Positions 6,744 through 34,965 of a stretch of DNA of 40,604 nucleotides are shown piece after piece. Numbering within the stretch: the stretch's first letter is position 1; every line of letters starts with the position of its first letter. Source of the DNA: Thermoleophilia bacterium (GTDB lineage Bacteria > Actinomycetota > Thermoleophilia > Gaiellales > Gaiellaceae). Location: contig JAHDVS010000004.1 of assembly GCA_023382435.1 (NCBI GenBank), positions 49,292-89,895 of the forward strand. The letters run 5' to 3'. The translations under genes were made by a program, and so were the position numbers. The notes beneath the pieces were generated by a model. The model did not search any database and was not told the origin of the DNA. It saw only the letters and a program-made list of their open reading frames with translations.

Positions 6744-7325
6744 TCACCGTCCGAGCGAGTGGTACTCCTCGTTCGGCACCCAGCCAAACGCGTTCGCGAG
6801 GCGGTTCGTGAAGTTGAACATCGCCGCGACCTCGCCGATGTCCATGATCTCCTCGTCCGTCCAGCCGGCGTCGCGCAGCAGCTCGAGGTCCGACTCGGCG
6901 CAGGCGGCCGTGCGGGTCGTGACCGTGACGGCGAAGTCGAGCATCGCCCGCTCCTTCGCCGTCAGCCGGGCCGCGTGGCGGTAGTCGGCCATGAGCTGGT
7001 CGGCGAGCACCGCGTCCTCCGTGAGTTGCCGCAACGCGGCAGCGTGGGAGGTCAGTCAGTAGTAGCAGCGGTTCTCGGCGGAGACGACGACGGCGATCAT
7101 CTCCCGCTGGGCCGGGGTCAGTCCGGACTCGCCGCGCAGGAGCTCGTCGTAGTAGGCACGCCAGCGCACCATGTGCGCCGGGCGCAACGCGAAGACCCGA
7201 AACACGTTCGGCACGAACCCGAGTCGCTCGCGGGCCTTCGCGAACAGCTCGCGCAGCTCGGCGGGCAGCTCCCGCTCGTCCGGGACCGGCAGCCAGGAGA
7301 TCCGCTCGCGCTTGCAGCGTGCCAT
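6744..7325 (-). CDS. AhpD-like peroxidase-related enzyme with in-frame TGA (probable selenocysteine)
   Basis: 193 codons in one frame from ATG 7325 to TGA 6744, interrupted at codon 90 by TGA (7058-7056). Before it the protein reads to SAENRCYY; after it the same frame continues LTSHAAALRQLTED and ends in FNFTNRLANAFGWVPNEEYH SLGR, the normal C-terminus of the peroxidase-related (carboxymuconolactone decarboxylase/AhpD) family. Family members have Cys at the TGA position, giving ExxCxxCxxxH; here it is E84, C87, TGA90, H94. Reading TGA as selenocysteine restores a full-length CxxU enzyme. A hairpin 20 nt downstream and selD at 33-34 kb support this. The alternative is a nonsense mutation or sequence error; gene finders would split it in two. 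Likely role: thiol/selenol-dependent peroxide reduction. Confidence 0.8.
7027..7041 (-). promoter_or_regulatory. Candidate bSECIS hairpin downstream of the in-frame TGA
   Basis: On the minus strand TGCCGC (7041-7036) and GCGGCA (7032-7027) form a perfect 6-bp stem with the loop GTT. The loop begins 20 nt after the TGA. Known bacterial SECIS elements are small hairpins with a G at the start of the apical loop, roughly 16-37 nt from the UGA; this one fits. It lies inside the coding sequence, as bacterial SECIS elements do. GC-rich DNA forms such stems by chance, so this is supporting rather than decisive. Confidence 0.5.
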
Positions 7326-7357: not shown

Positions 7358-7431
7358 GGGGGCGTAGTTCAGCTGGTTAGAACGCCGGCCTGTCACGCCG
7401 GAGGTCGCGGGTTCGAGTCCCGTCGCTCCCG
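7358..7431 (+). tRNA. tRNA-Asp (GTC)
   Basis: 74 nt cloverleaf. The acceptor GGGGGCG (7358-7364) pairs with CGCTCCC (7424-7430), discriminator G7431. The D-arm contains AGCTGGTTAGA, the anticodon stem CCGGC/GCCGG encloses loop CTGTCAC with anticodon GTC at 7392-7394, and the T-arm has GTTCGAGTC. CCA is not encoded. A restriction-modification cassette bounded by inverted repeats follows directly, so this tRNA may mark an integration hot spot. Confidence 0.95.
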
Positions 7432-7446
7432 TCCCGTCACTACGGG

Positions 7447-7498
7447 GTCAGGTCTTGCATCGTGCGACCCCGGCCCGTTGCGCGATGCAAGACCTGAC
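7447..7498. repeat. REP-like inverted repeat, left flank of the restriction cassette
   Basis: Arms GTCAGGTCTTGCATCG (7447-7462) and CGATGCAAGACCTGAC (7483-7498) are perfect 16-bp complements around a 20-nt GC-rich loop. A near-identical element lies at 10139-10196 and half copies at about 10787 and 12436. No transposase is visible, so I infer a non-autonomous REP/MITE-like element. As RNA it would fold into a strong hairpin and could act as a terminator behind tRNA-Asp. Confidence 0.85.
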
Positions 7499-7598
7499 TC
7501 CCTGCTGTGCAATCAAGCCGTCGGGCTCCGTCCGGCACGCTCGATACGGTCCCAGAACACATGTTCGTTTCGTCAGCAGCCTCTCATAGGATTGCTCT

Positions 7599-8795
7599 GT
7601 GGCTCTTGAAGTGACCCAGCCCGCGTCGCTCGACACGGGTAGCGAAGCCCCTCTCTCCGTCGCCGGCCTGTTCGCGGGCATCGGGGGAATCGAAGTCGGT
7701 CTTCACCGTGCGGGGCACGAGACCGTCGCTCTCTGCGAGATCGAACCGTCTGCCAACGTGGTGCTGCGATCGCACTTCCCGAGCATCCCGCTCACGGCCG
7801 ACATCCGCGAACTCGAAGCACTCCCCGAGGTCGGTCTCTGTACAGCGGGCTTCCCGTGCCAGGACCTGAGCCAGGCGGGCAAGACGGTGGGAATCCGGGG
7901 ACAGAACTCCGGCCTCGTCGCCGAGGTGTTCAGGTTGATCGAGAAGGCTGACCCGCGCTGGCTCCTGCTCGAGAACGTGCCATTCATGCTCCAGTTGGAC
8001 CGCGGCGAGGCGATGCGCTTCCTCACGCGCTCGTTGGAGAGACTCGGGTTCGCTTGGGCGTATCGGGTCGTGGACACCCGGGCATTCGGCCTTCCGCAAC
8101 GCCGACAGCGTGTGATCCTGCTCGCGTCTCGCTCCCGCGACCCGCGCGAGGTGCTCTTCGTCGGCGACGTGGGCGAGTCAGAGTGGCCCGATCACTCCGA
8201 GGTTGCCTGCGGTTTCTACTGGACAGAGGGTGTACGTGGGCTCGGTTGGGCGATCGACGCCATCCCGACGCTCAAGGGAGGATCGACGATCGGGATTGCG
8301 TCTCCCCCCGCCATCAGGTTCACCGATGGCCTCGTGGGGACTCCCGACATCCGAGACGCAGAGCGCCTACAGGGATTCGACACCGACTGGACTGCACCAG
8401 CTGTCGAAGGCCGCGGGCGCTCTGGCTCCCGATGGAAGCTCGTCGGCAACGCCGTCAGTGTCCCGGTCGCGGAGTGGGTAGGGACGCGGCTCCGAAGCCC
8501 GATGCCATACGACGGCACCAACGACGAGGCGCTTCCCCCGGGCGCGCCGTGGCCGAAGGCGGCTTGGGGCACCGGTGGCGAGGTGCGGAAGGTGGATCTG
8601 TCACCTTGGCCGGTTCGGTACGAGTACCGGTCGCTGGAGAGCTTCCTGGCGTACGAGCCGGCCCCCCTCTCGGAACGAGCGACTCGAGGCTTTCTCGGAC
8701 GTACGCGATCTTCGTCGCTGAGGTTCCCGCCGGGATTCCTCGACGAGGTCGAGGCATACCTGGCAACCGTACGGGTCGAGTCGCTCTTCGTCTAG
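7599..8795 (+). CDS. DNA (cytosine-5) methyltransferase
   Basis: 398 aa from GTG 7599 (MALEVTQPASLDTGSEAPLS), with AGGA nine bases upstream. Motif I is VAGLFAGIGGIEVGL (residues 21-35), motif IV GFPCQDLSQAG with catalytic Cys87, motif VI LLENVP (125), motif VIII QRRQRVIL, and motif X VGNAVSVPVAEWVG near residue 285. It transfers methyl from SAM to C5 of cytosine. A C-terminal extension of about 100 aa follows motif X. Base composition looks lower in GC than neighbouring genes, a sign of transfer. The next two genes are a probable restriction enzyme and Vsr, so this is the modification part of a type II cassette. Recognition sequence cannot be predicted. Confidence 0.93.
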   Translation: MALEVTQPASLDTGSEAPLSVAGLFAGIGGIEVGLHRAGHETVALCEIEPSANVVLRSHFPSIPLTADIRELEALPEVGLCTAGFPCQDLSQAGKTVGIRGQNSGLVAEVFRLIEKADPRWLLLENVPFMLQLDRGEAMRFLTRSLERLGFAWAYRVVDTRAFGLPQRRQRVILLASRSRDPREVLFVGDVGESEWPDHSEVACGFYWTEGVRGLGWAIDAIPTLKGGSTIGIASPPAIRFTDGLVGTPDIRDAERLQGFDTDWTAPAVEGRGRSGSRWKLVGNAVSVPVAEWVGTRLRSPMPYDGTNDEALPPGAPWPKAAWGTGGEVRKVDLSPWPVRYEYRSLESFLAYEPAPLSERATRGFLGRTRSSSLRFPPGFLDEVEAYLATVRVESLFV

Positions 8796-8852
8796 GCGCA
8801 ACGAGCGGCAACATGCAGGAGCAGGACGCTCCGAGTCGTAGAACGTAGAGCC

Positions 8853-9692
8853 GTGGACGGGCCGACAATCATCGTCTCGAGCCTGTCCGTGCCGCACCCG
8901 AGAGGTCGCTCGAAGGCGCTGTGGCAGTACCACTCTCGATCAGACCATCACAGCAAGGTGGCGTGCTGGGCGGTGCTGTTCGACCTCCTGCAGCAGAGCG
9001 CTCTCATGCGCAGCCATGCCACAGCCGGCAAGATCGTCTTCGGCATAAACCACGAACTCCGCGACTTCGCGACCGCGAGGAAGAAGGTTCTCGACCTCGT
9101 GATCGCCCGACCGTCCGGTGCCGTGACCATGGAGACCCTCGCTGACCTCGCAGATCGGTACCGCGTTCTCCTCAACGCCGGACAGGAAGTCAAGCTCGCC
9201 CAGTTGCCGGAACTGAGACGCGCTCCTGTCGGTGCGGTCTTGATGGCGCTCGAGGCGAAGGCGGCGATGACCGAACACGTGAAGGCCCTGCCTCGTCTCT
9301 ACGACGAGTTGAACTCCAGCCACCAGACCGTGCACGGCGCCTCCCGTCAGGCGCTCGCCGTTGGGCTCGTCATGGTGAACGCGGCGCCGACGTTCATCAG
9401 CCCCGATCGCAACAAGAGACCGGGCGCGCCTGTCGTGTTCTCGAAACACTCGCAGCCGGCCGCTGCGGCGGCTGTCGTGTCAAAGGTACGCGAGATCCCG
9501 CGGCGCACGGCCAGTGCGACGGAAGGGTATGACGGGCTGGGCATCGTCGTCATCTCGTCGATCAACGACGGGAGGTCGCCGGCCCGTCTCGTCACGGGCC
9601 TGCCTGCGCCGGCGCCGGGTGACATCTTCCACTACGACAACATGATCACGCGCGTCGCGAACGAGTACGATACGACGTTCAAGTGGATCTGA
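8853..9692 (+). CDS. Probable type II restriction endonuclease (PD-(D/E)xK-like)
   Basis: 279 aa beginning MDGPTIIVSSLSVPHPRGRS. Placed 57 bp after a C5 methyltransferase and 21 bp before vsr, the normal place for the cognate endonuclease. The core segment ALEAKAAMTEHVKALPRLYD (from residue 132) contains E134-x-K136 followed by a conserved-looking PRLYDELNSSH stretch, suggesting a PD-(D/E)xK active site with D81 (KVLDLVIAR) as a possible partner. The C-terminus GDIFHYDNMITRVANEYD is compact and polar. I do not recognise a named enzyme; restriction activity is inferred from context and the ExK motif. Confidence 0.65.
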   Translation: MDGPTIIVSSLSVPHPRGRSKALWQYHSRSDHHSKVACWAVLFDLLQQSALMRSHATAGKIVFGINHELRDFATARKKVLDLVIARPSGAVTMETLADLADRYRVLLNAGQEVKLAQLPELRRAPVGAVLMALEAKAAMTEHVKALPRLYDELNSSHQTVHGASRQALAVGLVMVNAAPTFISPDRNKRPGAPVVFSKHSQPAAAAAVVSKVREIPRRTASATEGYDGLGIVVISSINDGRSPARLVTGLPAPAPGDIFHYDNMITRVANEYDTTFKWI

Positions 9693-9713
9693 CCGCTGCC
9701 TAGACTGGGCGGC

Positions 9714-10193
9714 GTGGCCAACGAGGGCACACCCGTTGCGTCCTCGCCGGATGCGCTTCGGCGGATGAAGGCTCAGCGTCAGCGCGATACAGCCTGCGAG
9801 CTCGAGCTCCGGTCGCGACTCCACAAGAGCGGGCTCCGGTTCCGCGTTCACTACCCGTTACCGGGACTTCGTCGACGGGCCGACATCGCCTTCCCGCGTC
9901 AGCGGGTAGCGGTATTCGTAGACGGGTGCTTCTGGCACGGTTGCCCTGAGCATGGCACCTGGCCGAAGCGAAACGCCGACTGGTGGCGGGAGAAGATCGA
10001 GGCAAACCGTCGTAGAGACGTGGACACGGAGCTGAGACTCAGGAAAGAGGGATGGGTCGTCGTGCGAATCTGGGAGCACGAGGATCCCCAATCGGGAGTT
10101 CGCGCCGTCGAGGAAGCCTTGCACCGCATAGGCGCTCCGGGTCAGGTCTTGCATCATGCAGACCCCCGACCCGTTGCACGATGCAAGACCTGA
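9714..10193 (+). CDS. vsr: Very short patch repair endonuclease Vsr
   Basis: 159 aa from GTG 9714. The Vsr signature is complete: DALRRMKAQRQRDTACELEL, then FRVHYPLPGLRRRADIAFP with the catalytic Asp, VFVDGCFWHGCPEH with the zinc/catalytic His and Cys, and WWREKIEANRRRD. Vsr nicks 5' of T in T:G mismatches made by deamination of 5-methylcytosine, which explains its link to the methyltransferase gene. The last ~17 residues (GQVLHHADPRPVARCKT) are encoded by the inverted repeat at 10139-10196, so the natural C-terminus was probably about APG and has been extended by the repeat. Confidence 0.93.
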   Translation: MANEGTPVASSPDALRRMKAQRQRDTACELELRSRLHKSGLRFRVHYPLPGLRRRADIAFPRQRVAVFVDGCFWHGCPEHGTWPKRNADWWREKIEANRRRDVDTELRLRKEGWVVVRIWEHEDPQSGVRAVEEALHRIGAPGQVLHHADPRPVARCKT

Positions 10194-10196
10194 CCC
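10139..10196. repeat. REP-like inverted repeat, right flank of the restriction cassette
   Basis: Arms GGGTCAGGTCTTGCATC (10139-10155) and GATGCAAGACCTGACCC (10180-10196) are perfect 17-bp complements around 24 nt. Same element as 7447-7498. It overlaps the 3' end of vsr and supplies its stop codon. The hairpin could also end transcription of the cassette. Confidence 0.85.
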
Positions 10197-10225
10197 TCGC
10201 CGCCCGCCGCTAAGCTCCTCACCCG

Positions 10226-12651: not shown

Positions 12652-13989
12652 CTAGCCCGCCGGGTTCGTGACGCGGCCGAGGAAGAGGACGGCGCCGGTC
12701 TCGCGGTCGCGCAGCGCGTAGAGGAACGGCCGGTCAACGGTGACAGAGATCGGCTCGGGCTTCGGCTCGGGGGCGGCGGTCGCCTCCATGCCGACGGCGG
12801 TTGCCGCGGCCGCCTCGGTGCCGGCCTCGTCGACCGTGATGTTCGCCTGGTGGATGACGAAGCCGATCCGCAGCGGCTCGTCGGCGGTCATGCCGGTGAA
12901 GTCGGCCCCGTCCGTGAACGCGGTCGGCATGCCGAGCGCGGCCAGCGCGGCCGATAGCTCGACCCGGGTCTCGATGTCCCACTTCGGCAGCAGCAGCACG
13001 ACGTCGGTCGGGCCGACCGCGCCCGCCGCCTCGTCGATCAGGCCGGCGGCGAGCCCGCTCTCGACGGTGGCCAGCTCGCCCTCGTCGGGGAGGAGCACCA
13101 GCATCGCGAGTGCCTCGCCGGCGTAGGGCAGTTCGACCGCCTGCCAGCCGCTGCCGCGCGCGTAAGCCATTGTCTCGTCGTGTCGCGCCATGACCGGCAA
13201 CTCGACGGTGGAGCCGTCGAGCAGCGTGAACGGCTCGGGTCGGGTCGCGTCGACCGCGAACGGGGTCGCCCACGGCGCTTTCAGGTAGATCGCGTTCACG
13301 AGGACGAGGCGTGTCAGGGCGTTGACCATTCCGGGGCCGAGGAGCTCGGGGATGCGACCGCGCGTCTCCTCGCCGACCCAGCCGTTCACCACGATCCGGG
13401 CGGCCTCCGGGTCGGCGACGAAGTCGGCGAGTCGCACGCCCACTCCGTACTCGCGCGCGAGCACGTCGAGGAAGGCCTCCTGCCACGTGAGCGTCCGCTG
13501 TCCCCAGACCGCGTTGGCGATCGACAGCTCGACGCTGGCCGGCTCGCCGAGCACGTCGACCGTGCCGCTACGCGCCTCGAGCGCCCGCGTGAGCCCGTTC
13601 AGCGCGTGGTGGATCGCGTCCGGGTCGTCCAGGTGCAGGACGGCGTCCAGCTCCGAGGCGGTCGTGCCCGCGGCGCCCGCCCGCGTCATGGCGAGCGCGA
13701 CGAGGATGCTGGCCGGCGAGAAGACGAGGTTGTCGTCGCTCGCGGCGGCGAGCGACGCGTAGAGGTCGGCGCCGAACGCGCCGATCGAGCGGGCACCGGG
13801 TGCGGCGTCGCCGGCGGCGGCAGGAGCCCGCTCGACGCTCGCGATCGCGAGGACATCGCCGTCGGAGGGCGTGGGCCCCGGCTCGGTGGACGGCGCCGGC
13901 GACGGCTCATCCGGCCCGCCGCAGCCGCCGAGTAGCCACACTCCGGCAGGTGCGGCGAGGCAGAGCAGGAAGTCTCGGCGGCTCAGCAT
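12652..13989 (-). CDS. Serpin-family protease inhibitor, Tat-exported lipoprotein
   Basis: 445 aa from ATG 13989. Residues 1-25 contain a twin-arginine motif (SRRDFL) and a lipobox (LGGC, Cys23), so the protein is probably exported folded and lipid-anchored. The rest is a full serpin: NLVFSPASILVALAMTRAGA, ANAVWGQ, LVLVNAIYLKAPWATPF, and the C-terminal DRPFLYALRDRETGAVLFLG then RVTNP. The reactive-loop hinge EAGTEAAAAT has the small residues needed for loop insertion, so it should be an inhibitor. Counting from the hinge puts P1-P1' near MEAT-AA, suggesting elastase- or subtilisin-like targets (inference). Confidence 0.93.
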   Translation of the reverse strand: MLSRRDFLLCLAAPAGVWLLGGCGGPDEPSPAPSTEPGPTPSDGDVLAIASVERAPAAAGDAAPGARSIGAFGADLYASLAAASDDNLVFSPASILVALAMTRAGAAGTTASELDAVLHLDDPDAIHHALNGLTRALEARSGTVDVLGEPASVELSIANAVWGQRTLTWQEAFLDVLAREYGVGVRLADFVADPEAARIVVNGWVGEETRGRIPELLGPGMVNALTRLVLVNAIYLKAPWATPFAVDATRPEPFTLLDGSTVELPVMARHDETMAYARGSGWQAVELPYAGEALAMLVLLPDEGELATVESGLAAGLIDEAAGAVGPTDVVLLLPKWDIETRVELSAALAALGMPTAFTDGADFTGMTADEPLRIGFVIHQANITVDEAGTEAAAATAVGMEATAAPEPKPEPISVTVDRPFLYALRDRETGAVLFLGRVTNPAG

Positions 13990-14116
13990 GCTGGTTGGAC
14001 GGCCGACGGGACGCACCGGTTCCCGCCGGCGCCACGCCCCGAGTGTCCGGAGTGCAGTCTGGCACCGCGCGAGGATGGGACGGCAGCTCCCGCCACGCCG
14101 ACTACGATTCACCGCC

Positions 14117-15094
14117 GTGCGCATCCTCGTCACCGGTGGCGCGGGCATGCTCGGGCGCAAGCTCGCCGAGCGTCTCGCGCGTGACGGCGAGCTCGGGGGC
14201 GAGCGGATCTCGCGCCTCGTGCTTGCCGACCTGGCCACGCCCGGCGCGCCCGAGGGGGCGGGGCCCGAGGTCGCCGCGGTCGCCTGCGACCTTGCCGCTC
14301 CGGGCGTCGCGGAGAAGCTGCTGGCGGATCGCCCCGAGGTGGTCTTCCACCTGGCCGCGGTCGTCTCGGGCGAGGCCGAGACCGACTTCGAGAAGGGCTA
14401 CCGCGTCAACCTGGACGGGACGCGCCTCCTGCTCGACGCGATCCGGGCTGACCCCGGGTACCGCCCGCGGCTCGTCTTCGCCTCGTCGATCGCCGTCTTC
14501 GGGGCGCCGTTCCCGGACGTGATCGGCGACGACTTCCACACGGCGCCGCTGACGAGCTACGGGACGCAGAAGGCGATCGGGGAGCTGCTCGTCTCCGACT
14601 ACTCGCGCCGCGGTTTCCTCGACGGGGTCGCGATCCGGCTGCCGACGATCTGCGTGCGGCCGGGCGGGCCGAACCGGGCGGCGTCAGGCTTCTTCTCGTC
14701 GATCATCCGCGAGCCTCTGAGCGGCCAGGTGGCGCTCTTGCCGGTCGCGGACGATGTACGCCACACCCACGCCTCGCCGCGGGCTGCGGTCGGCTTCTTC
14801 CTGCGCGCCGCGACCGTCGAGGAGGGCGCGCTGCGCGAGCGCCGCTGCCTGACGATGCCGGGCGTCTCCGCGACCGTCGGCGAGCAGCTCGAGGCGCTAC
14901 GCCGCGTCGCGGGAGACGGGGCCGTCTCTCTCGTCCGGCGCGAGCCCGACGAGCTCGTCGCGCGGATCGTCGCCGGCTGGCCGCAGCGCGTCGACGCAGG
15001 GCGCGCCCGCGAGCTCGGCTTCCGGGCGGAGACGAGCTTCGAGGAGATCGTGCGCGTCCACGTCGAGGACGAGCTCGGCGGGCGGATCCCGTGA
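14117..15094 (+). CDS. denD: D-erythronate dehydrogenase (NAD-dependent epimerase/dehydratase family)
   Basis: 325 aa from GTG 14117; the open frame further upstream is the shadow of the serpin leader. Extended SDR with Rossmann motif [16 protein letters not shown], then [20 protein letters not shown], the catalytic SSIAVFG and [20 protein letters not shown], and [13 protein letters not shown]. [14 protein letters not shown] and [12 protein letters not shown] are characteristic of DenD, which oxidises D-erythronate to 2-oxo-tetronate in four-carbon acid sugar catabolism. No denK/otnK-type kinase or aldolase is adjacent in the window. Its stop overlaps the next gene as GTGA. Confidence 0.82.
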
Positions 15095-18349: not shown

Positions 18350-19279
18350 ATGCAGCTCGAGGGACTCCATCACGTCACGCTGATCACCGGCGACGCGCGC
18401 CGCAACCTCGACTTCTACACCCGGTTGCTCGGTCTTCGGCTCGTCAAGAAGACGGTCAACCAGGACGACCCGACCGTCTACCACCTCTTCTACGCCGACG
18501 AGCTCGGGAGCCCGGGTGCGGACATCACGTTCTTCGAGTACCCGGGCGCGCGTCCGGGGCGGGCCGGGGCCGGCATGGTGCATCGGATCACGTGGCGCGT
18601 CGGCTCGGAGGAGGCGCTGGCCTTCTGGGCCGCGAGACTGGGGACGGAGGGGATCCCGGTCACGTGGGTCGATGGGCGTCTGCGTTTCCACGACCCCGAG
18701 GGGCTCGAGCTCGAGCTCGCAGTCACGGGGACGGGTGACGAGCCCCTCGTCGCGGCTCACCCGCAGATCCCGGCGGCGCTCGCGCTCCAGGGCTTCGACG
18801 GCGTTCGCGCGTACGCGGCCGATCCCGAGGCGGGCCGGGACTTCATGGAGGGAACGCTCGGCTTCGCGCCGGCTGGCCCCGATGCGGCCTGGGATGTCCG
18901 CGGCGAGGCTCGCGGCGGCCACTACGAGCTTGACGAGGCGCCGGCCGAGCCTGGCGCCGGGGGCGCGGGCACGGTGCACCACGTGGCCTGGGCCTCGACG
19001 ATGGAGGATCACGAGCGTTGGCGCGGGCGGGTGGTCCTGGCCGGGCGCTCCCCGACACCGATCGTCGACCGCTTCTGGTTTCGCTCGATCTACTTCCGCG
19101 AGCCGGGCGGCGTCCTCTTCGAGATCGCGACGCTCGGTCCGGGCTTCACCGTCGACGAGCCACTCGAGCAGCTGGGCCAGTCGCTCGTGCTCCCGCCGGC
19201 CTTCGAGCACCTGCGCGAGCGCATCGAGCGCACGCTGACGCCCCTGCCGGGCCCGGCCTCGCCCGCCCAGCACGGGTAG
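18350..19279 (+). CDS. VOC-family ring-cleaving dioxygenase-like protein
   Basis: 309 aa from ATG 18350 with GGGAGGGCGC upstream. Two glyoxalase/VOC modules: first MQLEGLHHVTLITGDARRNL, then LGLRLVKKTVNQDDPTVYHL; second begins LQGFDGVRAYAADPEAGRDF. Likely metal ligands are His in LHHVTL, His in TVHHVAWAS and Glu in GVLFEIATLGPGF, the pattern of PcpA/LinE/MhqA-type hydroquinone dioxygenases. The substrate is unknown and many homologues are uncharacterised. The stop codon TAG is part of a palindromic repeat. Confidence 0.85.
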   Translation: MQLEGLHHVTLITGDARRNLDFYTRLLGLRLVKKTVNQDDPTVYHLFYADELGSPGADITFFEYPGARPGRAGAGMVHRITWRVGSEEALAFWAARLGTEGIPVTWVDGRLRFHDPEGLELELAVTGTGDEPLVAAHPQIPAALALQGFDGVRAYAADPEAGRDFMEGTLGFAPAGPDAAWDVRGEARGGHYELDEAPAEPGAGGAGTVHHVAWASTMEDHERWRGRVVLAGRSPTPIVDRFWFRSIYFREPGGVLFEIATLGPGFTVDEPLEQLGQSLVLPPAFEHLRERIERTLTPLPGPASPAQHG

Positions 19280-33056: not shown

Positions 33057-34085
33057 TCAGACGACGGCCACGCCGCTTCCGGCCTCGACCCGGCCGATCC
33101 GCGCGAGGAAGAGCCCGCGCGAGCGAAATGCCGCCTCGAGCACGGCGACCCGCTCCCCCGGGAGGCACACGAGCAGGCCGCCGGCGGTCTGCGGGTCGTA
33201 CCCGAGCGCGGCCACCTCCGCACTGTCGGGCGTGGTGTCGAGCGCGCGGGCGGCGAAGTCGCGGTTGCGGCCGGCTCCGCCGGTCGCGATGCCCGCCCGC
33301 GCTGCCGTGCGCGCACCCGGGAGTGCGGGAAGCCGCTCGCCCTCGATGATCAGGCGCACGCCGCTTCGCTCCGCCACCTCGCGCCCGTGCCCGAACAGCC
33401 CGAAGCCGGTCACGTCCGTGACGGCGCTCGGCTCGAACGGCCGCAACGCCTCAGCGGCAGCGCCGTCGAGCGTCGACATCGACGCGACGGCGGCGGCGAG
33501 CTCGGTCTCCCCGAGCAGGCCGTCCCGTACGGCCGACAGGACGAGCCCCGTCCCGAGGCGCTTCGTCAGCAGGAGCGTGTCGCCCGGCCGGGCGCCGCTC
33601 TTTCGCCAGATCGCGTCCGGGTGCACCGTGCCGACCACGGCGAGCCCGTACTTGGGCTCGCTGTCGCGAATCGTGTGCCCGCCCGCGAGGATCGCACCGG
33701 CCTCCGCGACCTTGGCGGCGGCCGCGTCGAGAATGGACCGGACCGTGGCGAGCGCAAGCTCCTCCGGGAACGCCGCGATCGAGAGCGCGACGAGCGGCCT
33801 GCCGCCCATCGCGAACACGTCGTTCAGGGCGTTCGCCGCCGCGATCGCCCCGTAGGCCCGCGGGTCGTCGACCATCGGGGGGAAGAAGTCGGTCGTGAGC
33901 ACGACCGCTCGCTCGGCGTCGAGCCGGTAGACGGCCGCATCGTCGGGAGGGTCGAGGCCGACGAGCAGGTCAGCGGGCGCCGCGGGCGCGTACCCGGCCA
34001 GCAGCTTCTCGAGCAGGGCCGCGGAGTACTTCGCCGCGCAGCCGCCGCCGGCTTCGAGGCCCGCGAGGCCCGTGCCCGTGCCCAC
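33057..34085 (-). CDS. selD: Selenophosphate synthase
   Basis: 342 aa from GTG 34085, 14 bp after the rhodanese stop. The active-site segment EAGGGCAAKYSAALLEKLL carries Cys16 and Lys19, equivalents of E. coli Cys17 and Lys20. Next come LLVGLDPPDDAAVYRL, LTTDFFPPMVDDPRAYGAIA with NALNDVFAMGGRPLVALSIA, GHTIRDSEPKYGLAVVGTVH, and DVTGFGLFGHGREVAERSG. SelD makes selenophosphate from selenide and ATP, the Se donor for selenocysteine and for tRNA 2-selenouridine. It supports the reading of TGA as Sec at 7058. selA, selB and selC are not in the window. Confidence 0.95.
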   Translation of the reverse strand: MGTGTGLAGLEAGGGCAAKYSAALLEKLLAGYAPAAPADLLVGLDPPDDAAVYRLDAERAVVLTTDFFPPMVDDPRAYGAIAAANALNDVFAMGGRPLVALSIAAFPEELALATVRSILDAAAAKVAEAGAILAGGHTIRDSEPKYGLAVVGTVHPDAIWRKSGARPGDTLLLTKRLGTGLVLSAVRDGLLGETELAAAVASMSTLDGAAAEALRPFEPSAVTDVTGFGLFGHGREVAERSGVRLIIEGERLPALPGARTAARAGIATGGAGRNRDFAARALDTTPDSAEVAALGYDPQTAGGLLVCLPGERVAVLEAAFRSRGLFLARIGRVEAGSGVAVV

Positions 34086-34099
34086 GGTCCGCCGCGGAG

Positions 34100-34951
34100 C
34101 TACGGGCCCCTCGCGATCGGGACGTCGACGAGGTTGCCCCATTCGGTCCACGAGCCGTCGTAGTTACGCACGCTCTCGAAGCCGAGCAACTCGCGCAGCA
34201 CGAACCAGGTGTGCGCGCTGCGCTCGCCGATACGGCAGTACGCGACGATCTCCTTGCCCGCCGTGATGCCTTTGCTGGCGTAGATGTCGCGCAGCTCCTC
34301 CGCGGGCCTGAAGGTGCCGTCGTCCTTGACCGCGAGCGCCCACGGGATCGAGGCGGCTGTCGGGATGTGGCCGGCCCGTTGCGCGCCCTCCTGCTCGTAG
34401 CCGGGAGGAGCGATCAGGTCGCCCGCGTACTCGCCGGGGCTGCGGACGTCGACGAGGCCCCGGCCGTCGTCGCCGATCCACGCTCGCACCTGATCGCGGT
34501 ACGCCCGGATCGACTCGTCCCGCTCTCCGGCCGTGTACGCACGGGGCTGCGGCTCGGGCGCCCGCACGGTCAGCTCGCGACCCTCGTCAACCCACTTCTG
34601 ACGGCCCCCGTTCAGGATCCGCACGTCCGCGTGCCCGTAGATCTTCAGGTACCAGTACGCGTACGCGGCGAACCAGTTGTTCTTGTCGCCGTAGAGGACG
34701 ACGGTGGTGTCGTTCGCAACGCCGCGCGCGCCGAGCAAGCGCTCGAACGTCTCGCGATCGACCAGGTCGCGCTCGACGGGGTCCTGGAGGTCGTCGCGCC
34801 AGTGCAGCTTGACGGCACCGCGGATGTGCCCCTCGTCGTAGAGGTCGGGGTTCTCGTCGACCTCCGCGACGACCACGCCGGGATTGTCCAGGCGGGTCGC
34901 CAACCAGTCGGTCGAGACGAGGACGGGCTTCGCGTAACCCTTCTCGGCCAT
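34100..34951 (-). CDS. Two-domain thiosulfate sulfurtransferase (rhodanese)
   Basis: 283 aa from ATG 34951 (GGAGG five bases upstream); a GTG two codons earlier is inside the ribosome-binding site. Two rhodanese domains: inactive N-terminal (VVVAEVDENPDLYDEGHIRG, VVLYGDKNNWFAAYAYWYLK) and active C-terminal with VAYCRIGERSAHTWFVLREL, Cys239. CRIGERS is the loop of CysA/SseA thiosulfate sulfurtransferases. It directly precedes selD, so it may supply persulfide-like selenium to SelD (inference). An inverted repeat CTTCA-N5-TGAAG lies 15 bp upstream of the ATG. Confidence 0.93.
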   Translation of the reverse strand: MAEKGYAKPVLVSTDWLATRLDNPGVVVAEVDENPDLYDEGHIRGAVKLHWRDDLQDPVERDLVDRETFERLLGARGVANDTTVVLYGDKNNWFAAYAYWYLKIYGHADVRILNGGRQKWVDEGRELTVRAPEPQPRAYTAGERDESIRAYRDQVRAWIGDDGRGLVDVRSPGEYAGDLIAPPGYEQEGAQRAGHIPTAASIPWALAVKDDGTFRPAEELRDIYASKGITAGKEIVAYCRIGERSAHTWFVLRELLGFESVRNYDGSWTEWGNLVDVPIARGP

Positions 34952-34965
34952 CGGCACCTCCCATA

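What the first reader, a model, noticed from the sequence alone, without database searches (positions are those of the whole stretch)
6744..7325. Unannotated selenoprotein: AhpD-like enzyme with CxxU active site
Seen: two adjoining minus-strand open frames (7325-7059 and 7055-6744) are in the same phase, separated only by TGA at 7058-7056. Together they give a complete peroxidase-related protein. The TGA falls exactly on the second cysteine of the family motif ExxCxxCxxxH (E84, C87, TGA90, H94). Known: this cysteine is catalytic or resolving in AhpD-type enzymes, AhpD-like selenoproteins have been reported from other bacteria, and selD at 33057-34085 provides selenophosphate. Standard gene callers would report two truncated genes. 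Inference: this lineage uses Sec here for peroxide defence.
Basis: partly seen in the sequence, partly recalled or inferred. Interest (0 to 1): 0.86.

Follow-up and report, generated by a model that had tools for sequence, protein, structure and literature searches.

The report
AhpD-like selenoprotein gene, UGA-recoded
The gene really does appear to read an internal UGA "stop" as the rare amino acid selenocysteine at the active site of a peroxide-detoxifying enzyme, in a bacterium with the full selenocysteine machinery; this kind of selenoprotein is already catalogued, so it is a well-supported new example and not a new phenomenon.

Summary
On the minus strand, one frame of 193 codons (7325-6744) is broken only by TGA at 7058-7056. 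Read through, it is a full-length TIGR01926 "peroxidase-related" AhpD/CMD protein, and the TGA falls on the second Cys of CxxC (C87-Y-Y-U90, E75, H94). Read-through as selenocysteine is well supported. The same genome encodes selA, selB, tRNA-Sec (UCA), selD (in the window) and a second gene, formate dehydrogenase, with TGA at its usual Sec site. Three relatives from other genera (55-66% identity) carry TGA at the same codon; all 19 other related genes of the same type carry TGC there. About 20 more distant TGA-bearing relatives occur in the same bacterial family. Sequence after the TGA stays under coding constraint. A bSECIS-type hairpin with a GUU loop lies 20 nt downstream; all four Sec genes spell it with the rare Leu codon TTG, none of 15 Cys genes with Leu there do. 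AhpD-like CxxU selenoproteins of exactly this family (TIGR01926) are already listed in the literature, so this is a new member of a known kind, of modest interest. Peroxide-defence function is inferred from Cys homologues; Sec insertion was not shown experimentally.

The parts
6744..7325 (-). AhpD-like (TIGR01926 peroxidase-related) selenoprotein gene, 193 aa with one in-frame TGA
7056..7058 (-). In-frame TGA, codon 90, read as selenocysteine (second residue of CxxU)
   Evidence: TGA at the same codon in G033, G004, G086 and TGC in Cys orthologues
7065..7067 (-). Cys87 codon, first Cys of the CxxU motif
   Evidence: alignment to Cys homologues
7027..7041 (-). Candidate bSECIS upper hairpin UGCCGC-GUU-GCGGCA: 6 bp stem, 3-nt loop starting with GU, 20 nt between the UGA and the loop, -9.7 kcal/mol
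   Evidence: meets the published bSECIS criteria (PMC13188914); GCCGCGTTGCG invariant in four Sec orthologues
33057..34151 (-). selD, selenide water dikinase (selenophosphate supply)
   Evidence: TIGR00476 324.9 bits against a cut-off of 125
7358..7431 (+). tRNA-Asp (gtc), divergent neighbour upstream of the gene; not part of the system

Best explanation
The locus is one complete gene for an AhpD-like peroxidase-related enzyme of family TIGR01926, in which the second active-site residue (position 90) is selenocysteine encoded by UGA. A bSECIS hairpin just after the UGA recruits SelB with Sec-tRNA (made by SelA from SelD's selenophosphate), so ribosomes insert Sec instead of stopping. The Sec most likely attacks peroxide, or takes part in thiol/selenol exchange, as the peroxidatic residue. 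Cys87 would resolve the selenenic acid as a Se-S bond, with E75, Y89 and H94 as the proton relay. Shown here by sequence: the frame, the family, the site, the genomic Sec machinery and the comparative conservation. Inferred: actual Sec insertion, SECIS function and the enzymatic reaction.
For: Full-length family match only when the TGA is read through. selA (529.6 bits), selB (315.4 bits, with SelB winged-helix and beta-barrel domains) and tRNA-Sec (63.8 bits, ARAGORN TCA) in the same genome; selD in the window. Own genome also has formate dehydrogenase alpha with its single TGA in NRTUHAPSVVGL, the usual Sec position. TGA at the same codon in G033 (66% identity), G004 (65%) and G086 (55%), and TGC in the other 19 related genes of the same type, never another residue. 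About 20 more distant same-family relatives also carry TGA at this codon. Divergence downstream of the TGA is mostly highest at third codon positions, with 55-70% amino-acid identity and no frameshift. bSECIS-like hairpin at the right distance (model). Leu codon in the loop is TTG in 4 of 4 Sec genes and in 0 of 15 Cys genes with Leu there, against 3.7% TTG among Leu codons in a sample of the genome's genes. TGA is a normal stop here (selD, vsr and selB end in it).
Against: Hairpin stability alone is not significant: 264 of 1000 synonymous recodings fold at least as well as the window gene. In G033 the exact hairpin is ambiguous. Of the four Sec-type genomes, G033 (82% complete) showed neither selA nor tRNA-Sec, and G086 (63% complete) had tRNA-Sec but no selA found; both are fragmentary genomes. 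No conserved operon partner. No expression or protein data.
Confidence: 0.95

Rival explanations
1. Pseudogene or assembly error: a nonsense change or base-call error of TGC to TGA split a former Cys enzyme.
For: A single base separates TGC and TGA, and Cys orthologues exist in close relatives.
Against: The same codon is TGA in three other genera and in about 20 more distant relatives. Downstream half remains constrained. SECIS-loop TTG codon is restricted to the Sec forms.
Confidence: 0.02
2. Genome-wide reassignment of UGA to another amino acid (such as Trp or Gly).
For: None beyond the in-frame TGA itself.
Against: Family-supported genes in the window have no internal TGA, and several end in TGA. 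The tRNA with anticodon TCA is a structured tRNA-Sec with SelA and SelB alongside. The TGA sits at a Cys/Sec site, not at a Trp or Gly position.
Confidence: 0.01
3. Sec-type gene, but the product acts mainly as something other than a peroxidase, for example as reductant of AhpC/Prx or Ohr-type partners, or with another CMD-fold activity.
For: TIGR01926 is named only 'peroxidase-related'. AhpD of M. tuberculosis feeds electrons to AhpC and C. glutamicum AhpD to Ohr/OsmC (PMC8945050). No operon context to narrow the role.
Against: A D. radiodurans AhpD-like protein protects against H2O2 and its CxxC matters (PMC8945050); 6k40, a close hit, is by my reading that protein.
Confidence: 0.3

Closest known systems
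AhpD-like selenoprotein family, TIGR01926, CxxU (listed in PMC13188914 with MCB9421940.1; first reported from the Sargasso Sea, PMC1088965)
   Same: Same curated family, same CxxU motif, Sec at the second active-site position, bacterial SECIS downstream.
   Different: A new sequence from an unnamed high-GC bacterium; its identity to MCB9421940.1 was not measured, since that sequence is not in the tools.
Deinococcus AhpD-like proteins: 6k40 (by my reading DR_1765 of D. radiodurans, PMC8945050) and 2oyo of D. geothermalis
   Same: Closest solved structures (E 2.2e-47 and 5.1e-48, aligned over about 185 residues); same motif; the D. radiodurans mutant is H2O2-sensitive.
   Different: They use Cys where this protein has Sec.
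M. tuberculosis AhpD
   Same: Same active-site layout: E118, C130, C133, H137 correspond to E75, C87, U90, H94.
   Different: Different family (TIGR00777, 27.2 bits against a cut-off of 191.95); His132 is Tyr89 here; Cys instead of Sec.
NF041238 AhpD_rel_CFYUT and NF041047 GSU3128 (seleno)proteins
   Same: AhpD-type selenoproteins with CxxU.
   Different: Scores far below the cut-offs (65.4 against 175; 29.3 against 110), so not members.

Membership tests
TIGR01926 peroxidase-related enzyme (CMD/AhpD superfamily) | Full-length profile match above the curated cut-off | tested here: met
   196.2 bits against 81.8, profile 1-178 of 178
TIGR01926 peroxidase-related enzyme (CMD/AhpD superfamily) | CxxC/CxxU-xxx-H active site with the relay Glu 12 residues upstream | tested here: met
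   E75, C87, Y89, U90, H94; layout in PMC3141380
Bacterial selenoprotein | In-frame UGA at a site that is Cys in homologues | tested here: met
Bacterial selenoprotein | selA, selB, selC, selD present in the genome | tested here: met
[quoted passage not shown]
   Loop GUU, 6 bp, 20 nt, -9.7 kcal/mol; stability alone not above synonymous recodings
Bacterial selenoprotein | Selenocysteine present in the protein | not testable with these tools
   Needs mass spectrometry or 75Se labelling
AhpD sensu stricto (TIGR00777) | Profile match above the cut-off | tested here: not met
   27.2 bits against 191.95
NF041238 AhpD_rel_CFYUT (seleno)protein | Profile match above the cut-off | tested here: not met
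   65.4 bits against 175

The most novel reading that the evidence does not exclude
This bacterial family has an expanded set of AhpD-like selenoproteins, some sitting beside selA/selB/selC, which together could serve selenium or redox homeostasis as well as plain peroxide removal, with several Sec/Cys switches inside one enzyme family.
Probability: 0.15. Interest if true: 0.45.

Novelty: new member of a known kind. Interest (0 to 1): 0.27.

Why it matters
Standard gene callers would report two fragments and miss an intact redox enzyme; proper calling corrects the annotation here and in related genomes. The set of four Sec and 19 Cys genes of the same type, with the SECIS loop visible as a forced rare Leu codon, is a neat comparative test case for Sec/Cys exchange. 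It does not change what is known about selenoproteins.

Tried and rejected
Scan of genome contigs with the single protein gave only Cys homologues. Hairpin stability as stand-alone proof of SECIS was rejected: 264/1000 synonymous recodings are as stable; a stricter count of contiguous hairpins gave 0.086 (made with a codon table that included selA in the wrong frame; one search corrects the table). First folds of three relatives used wrong coordinates, starting after the TGA, and were redone. Conserved neighbourhood: none shared by the window gene and its orthologues except the gene itself. Promoter scan: none found. Pseudogene and UGA-reassignment readings rejected as above. The tree places Sec and Cys forms interleaved (fewest changes 4, starred branches force 2), but the deep forks are open, so the direction of change is not claimed. 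Taxonomic name of the genome was not established. No structure prediction was run, since close solved homologues exist.

Full report
Observation. On the minus strand of the window, 7325-6744 is one frame of 193 sense or recoded codons plus a terminal TGA, with a single internal stop, TGA at 7058-7056. Read through, the protein is MARCKRERIS...AENRCYYULTSHAAALRQL...GWVPNEEYHSLGR. It matches NCBIfam TIGR01926 over the whole profile (196.2 bits, cut-off 81.8) and Pfam CMD. The TGA lies exactly at the second residue of the CxxC active site. By the layout of M. tuberculosis AhpD (Glu118, Cys130, His132, Cys133, His137) and PA0269 (Glu36, Cys48, Tyr50, Cys51, His55; PMC3141380), the equivalents here are E75, C87, Y89, U90 and H94. 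The glutamate of the relay is therefore E75 and not E84.

Machinery. The window's genome (G000, 2.73 Mb, 79 contigs, 96% complete) holds one copy of this gene. On contig C17 it holds selA (529.6 bits), selB (315.4 bits), whose C-terminal SelB winged helix and beta-barrel are recognised, and a tRNA-Sec (63.8 bits; ARAGORN anticodon TCA). selD is in the window at 33057-34151 (324.9 bits). A second gene of the genome, formate dehydrogenase alpha on C25, has its only in-frame TGA in NRTUHAPSVVGL, the usual Sec position by established knowledge of that enzyme. TGA is also an ordinary terminator (selD, vsr, selB), so general reassignment is not supported.

Comparison. Among 151 related genomes, same-family orthologues at 55-66% identity fall into two kinds: TGA at this codon in G033, G004 and G086, and TGC in G021, G056, G045, G062 and G079. 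Ten further genomes of the class, G106 and three Pseudomonadota loci have TGC. No other codon occurs. About 20 more distant relatives (about 32-39% identity) from the same family carry TGA at the same place. Across the four Sec orthologues the part after the TGA changes most at third codon positions and stays 55-70% identical in protein, without frameshifts. Of the four genomes with the Sec form, two (G000, G004) have both selA and tRNA-Sec. G086 (63% complete) has tRNA-Sec without a detected selA, and G033 (82% complete) has neither detected; incompleteness is the likely reason, but this is not shown.

SECIS. Twenty nucleotides after the TGA begins the loop of a hairpin UGCCGC-GUU-GCGGCA (7041-7027; -9.7 kcal/mol). 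[quoted passage not shown] stem 4-16 bp; spacing 16-37 nt; MFE at or below -7.5; PMC13188914). The 11-nt run GCCGCGTTGCG is invariant in the four Sec genes. Its loop forces the Leu codon TTG, used in 4 of 4 Sec genes and in 0 of 15 Cys genes that have Leu there. TTG is 3.7% of Leu codons in a sample of this genome's genes, so four independent draws would give about 2e-6. The genes are related, so this is an indication and not a strict probability. By contrast, hairpin stability alone is not unusual for the encoded peptide in this GC-rich genome (264 of 1000 synonymous recodings are as stable), except in G086 (18 of 1000).

Mechanism. The closest solved relatives are 2oyo and 6k40 (E 5.1e-48 and 2.2e-47). 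PMC8945050 reports that a D. radiodurans mutant lacking its AhpD-like protein is sensitive to H2O2 and that changes of the CxxC weaken complementation; that 6k40 is that protein is my reading, not something the tools stated. By analogy, Sec90 would be the attacking residue and Cys87 the resolving one. This is inference; a role as electron donor to another peroxidase is a live alternative. The gene has no conserved neighbours, so context does not help.

Known or new. AhpD-like selenoproteins were found in the Sargasso Sea data (27 sequences; PMC1088965), were among the frequent families in the GOS survey (AhpD-like 1 and 2, CxxU; PMC2398784), and a 2026 review lists "AhpD-like protein, TIGR01926, CxxU" (PMC13188914). 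The present gene is a member of that kind.

Noticed in passing
G029:C1, G038:C118, G062:C66, G068:C35, G090:C29 (about 2-4 kb apart), G054:C73 (about 12 kb): In several same-family genomes a distant AhpD-like gene with in-frame TGA lies near selA on the opposite strand; in G062 a tRNA-Sec lies there too. A selenoprotein gene linked to the Sec machinery.
   Followed up: no
window 7444-7501 and about 10138-10197, also about 12438: Inverted repeat GGGGTCAGGTCTTGCATCG...CGATGCAAGACCTGACTCC occurs beside the tRNA-Asp and again after vsr, so two copies flank a dcm-like methyltransferase and vsr region (7599-10193). Only 6 matches in the whole genome; no transposase was found among the ORFs scanned.
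   Followed up: partly
G021:C4:18183-18692 and 18855-19253: Two tandem AhpD-like genes, each with one in-frame TGA.
   Followed up: no
G000:C25:20758-22629 (L080): Second likely selenoprotein of the genome: formate dehydrogenase alpha with TGA in NRTUHAPSVVGL.
   Followed up: partly
window 12652-14238, minus strand: Serpin (PF00079, 336.7 bits), a protease inhibitor family less usual in bacteria.
   Followed up: no
G062 and G106: Two matches above the tRNA-Sec cut-off in each of these genomes; whether both are true tRNA-Sec genes was not checked.
   Followed up: no
window 34100-34957, minus strand: A rhodanese/3-mercaptopyruvate sulfurtransferase-like gene directly next to and overlapping the selD frame; possible link to selenium supply.
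   Followed up: no
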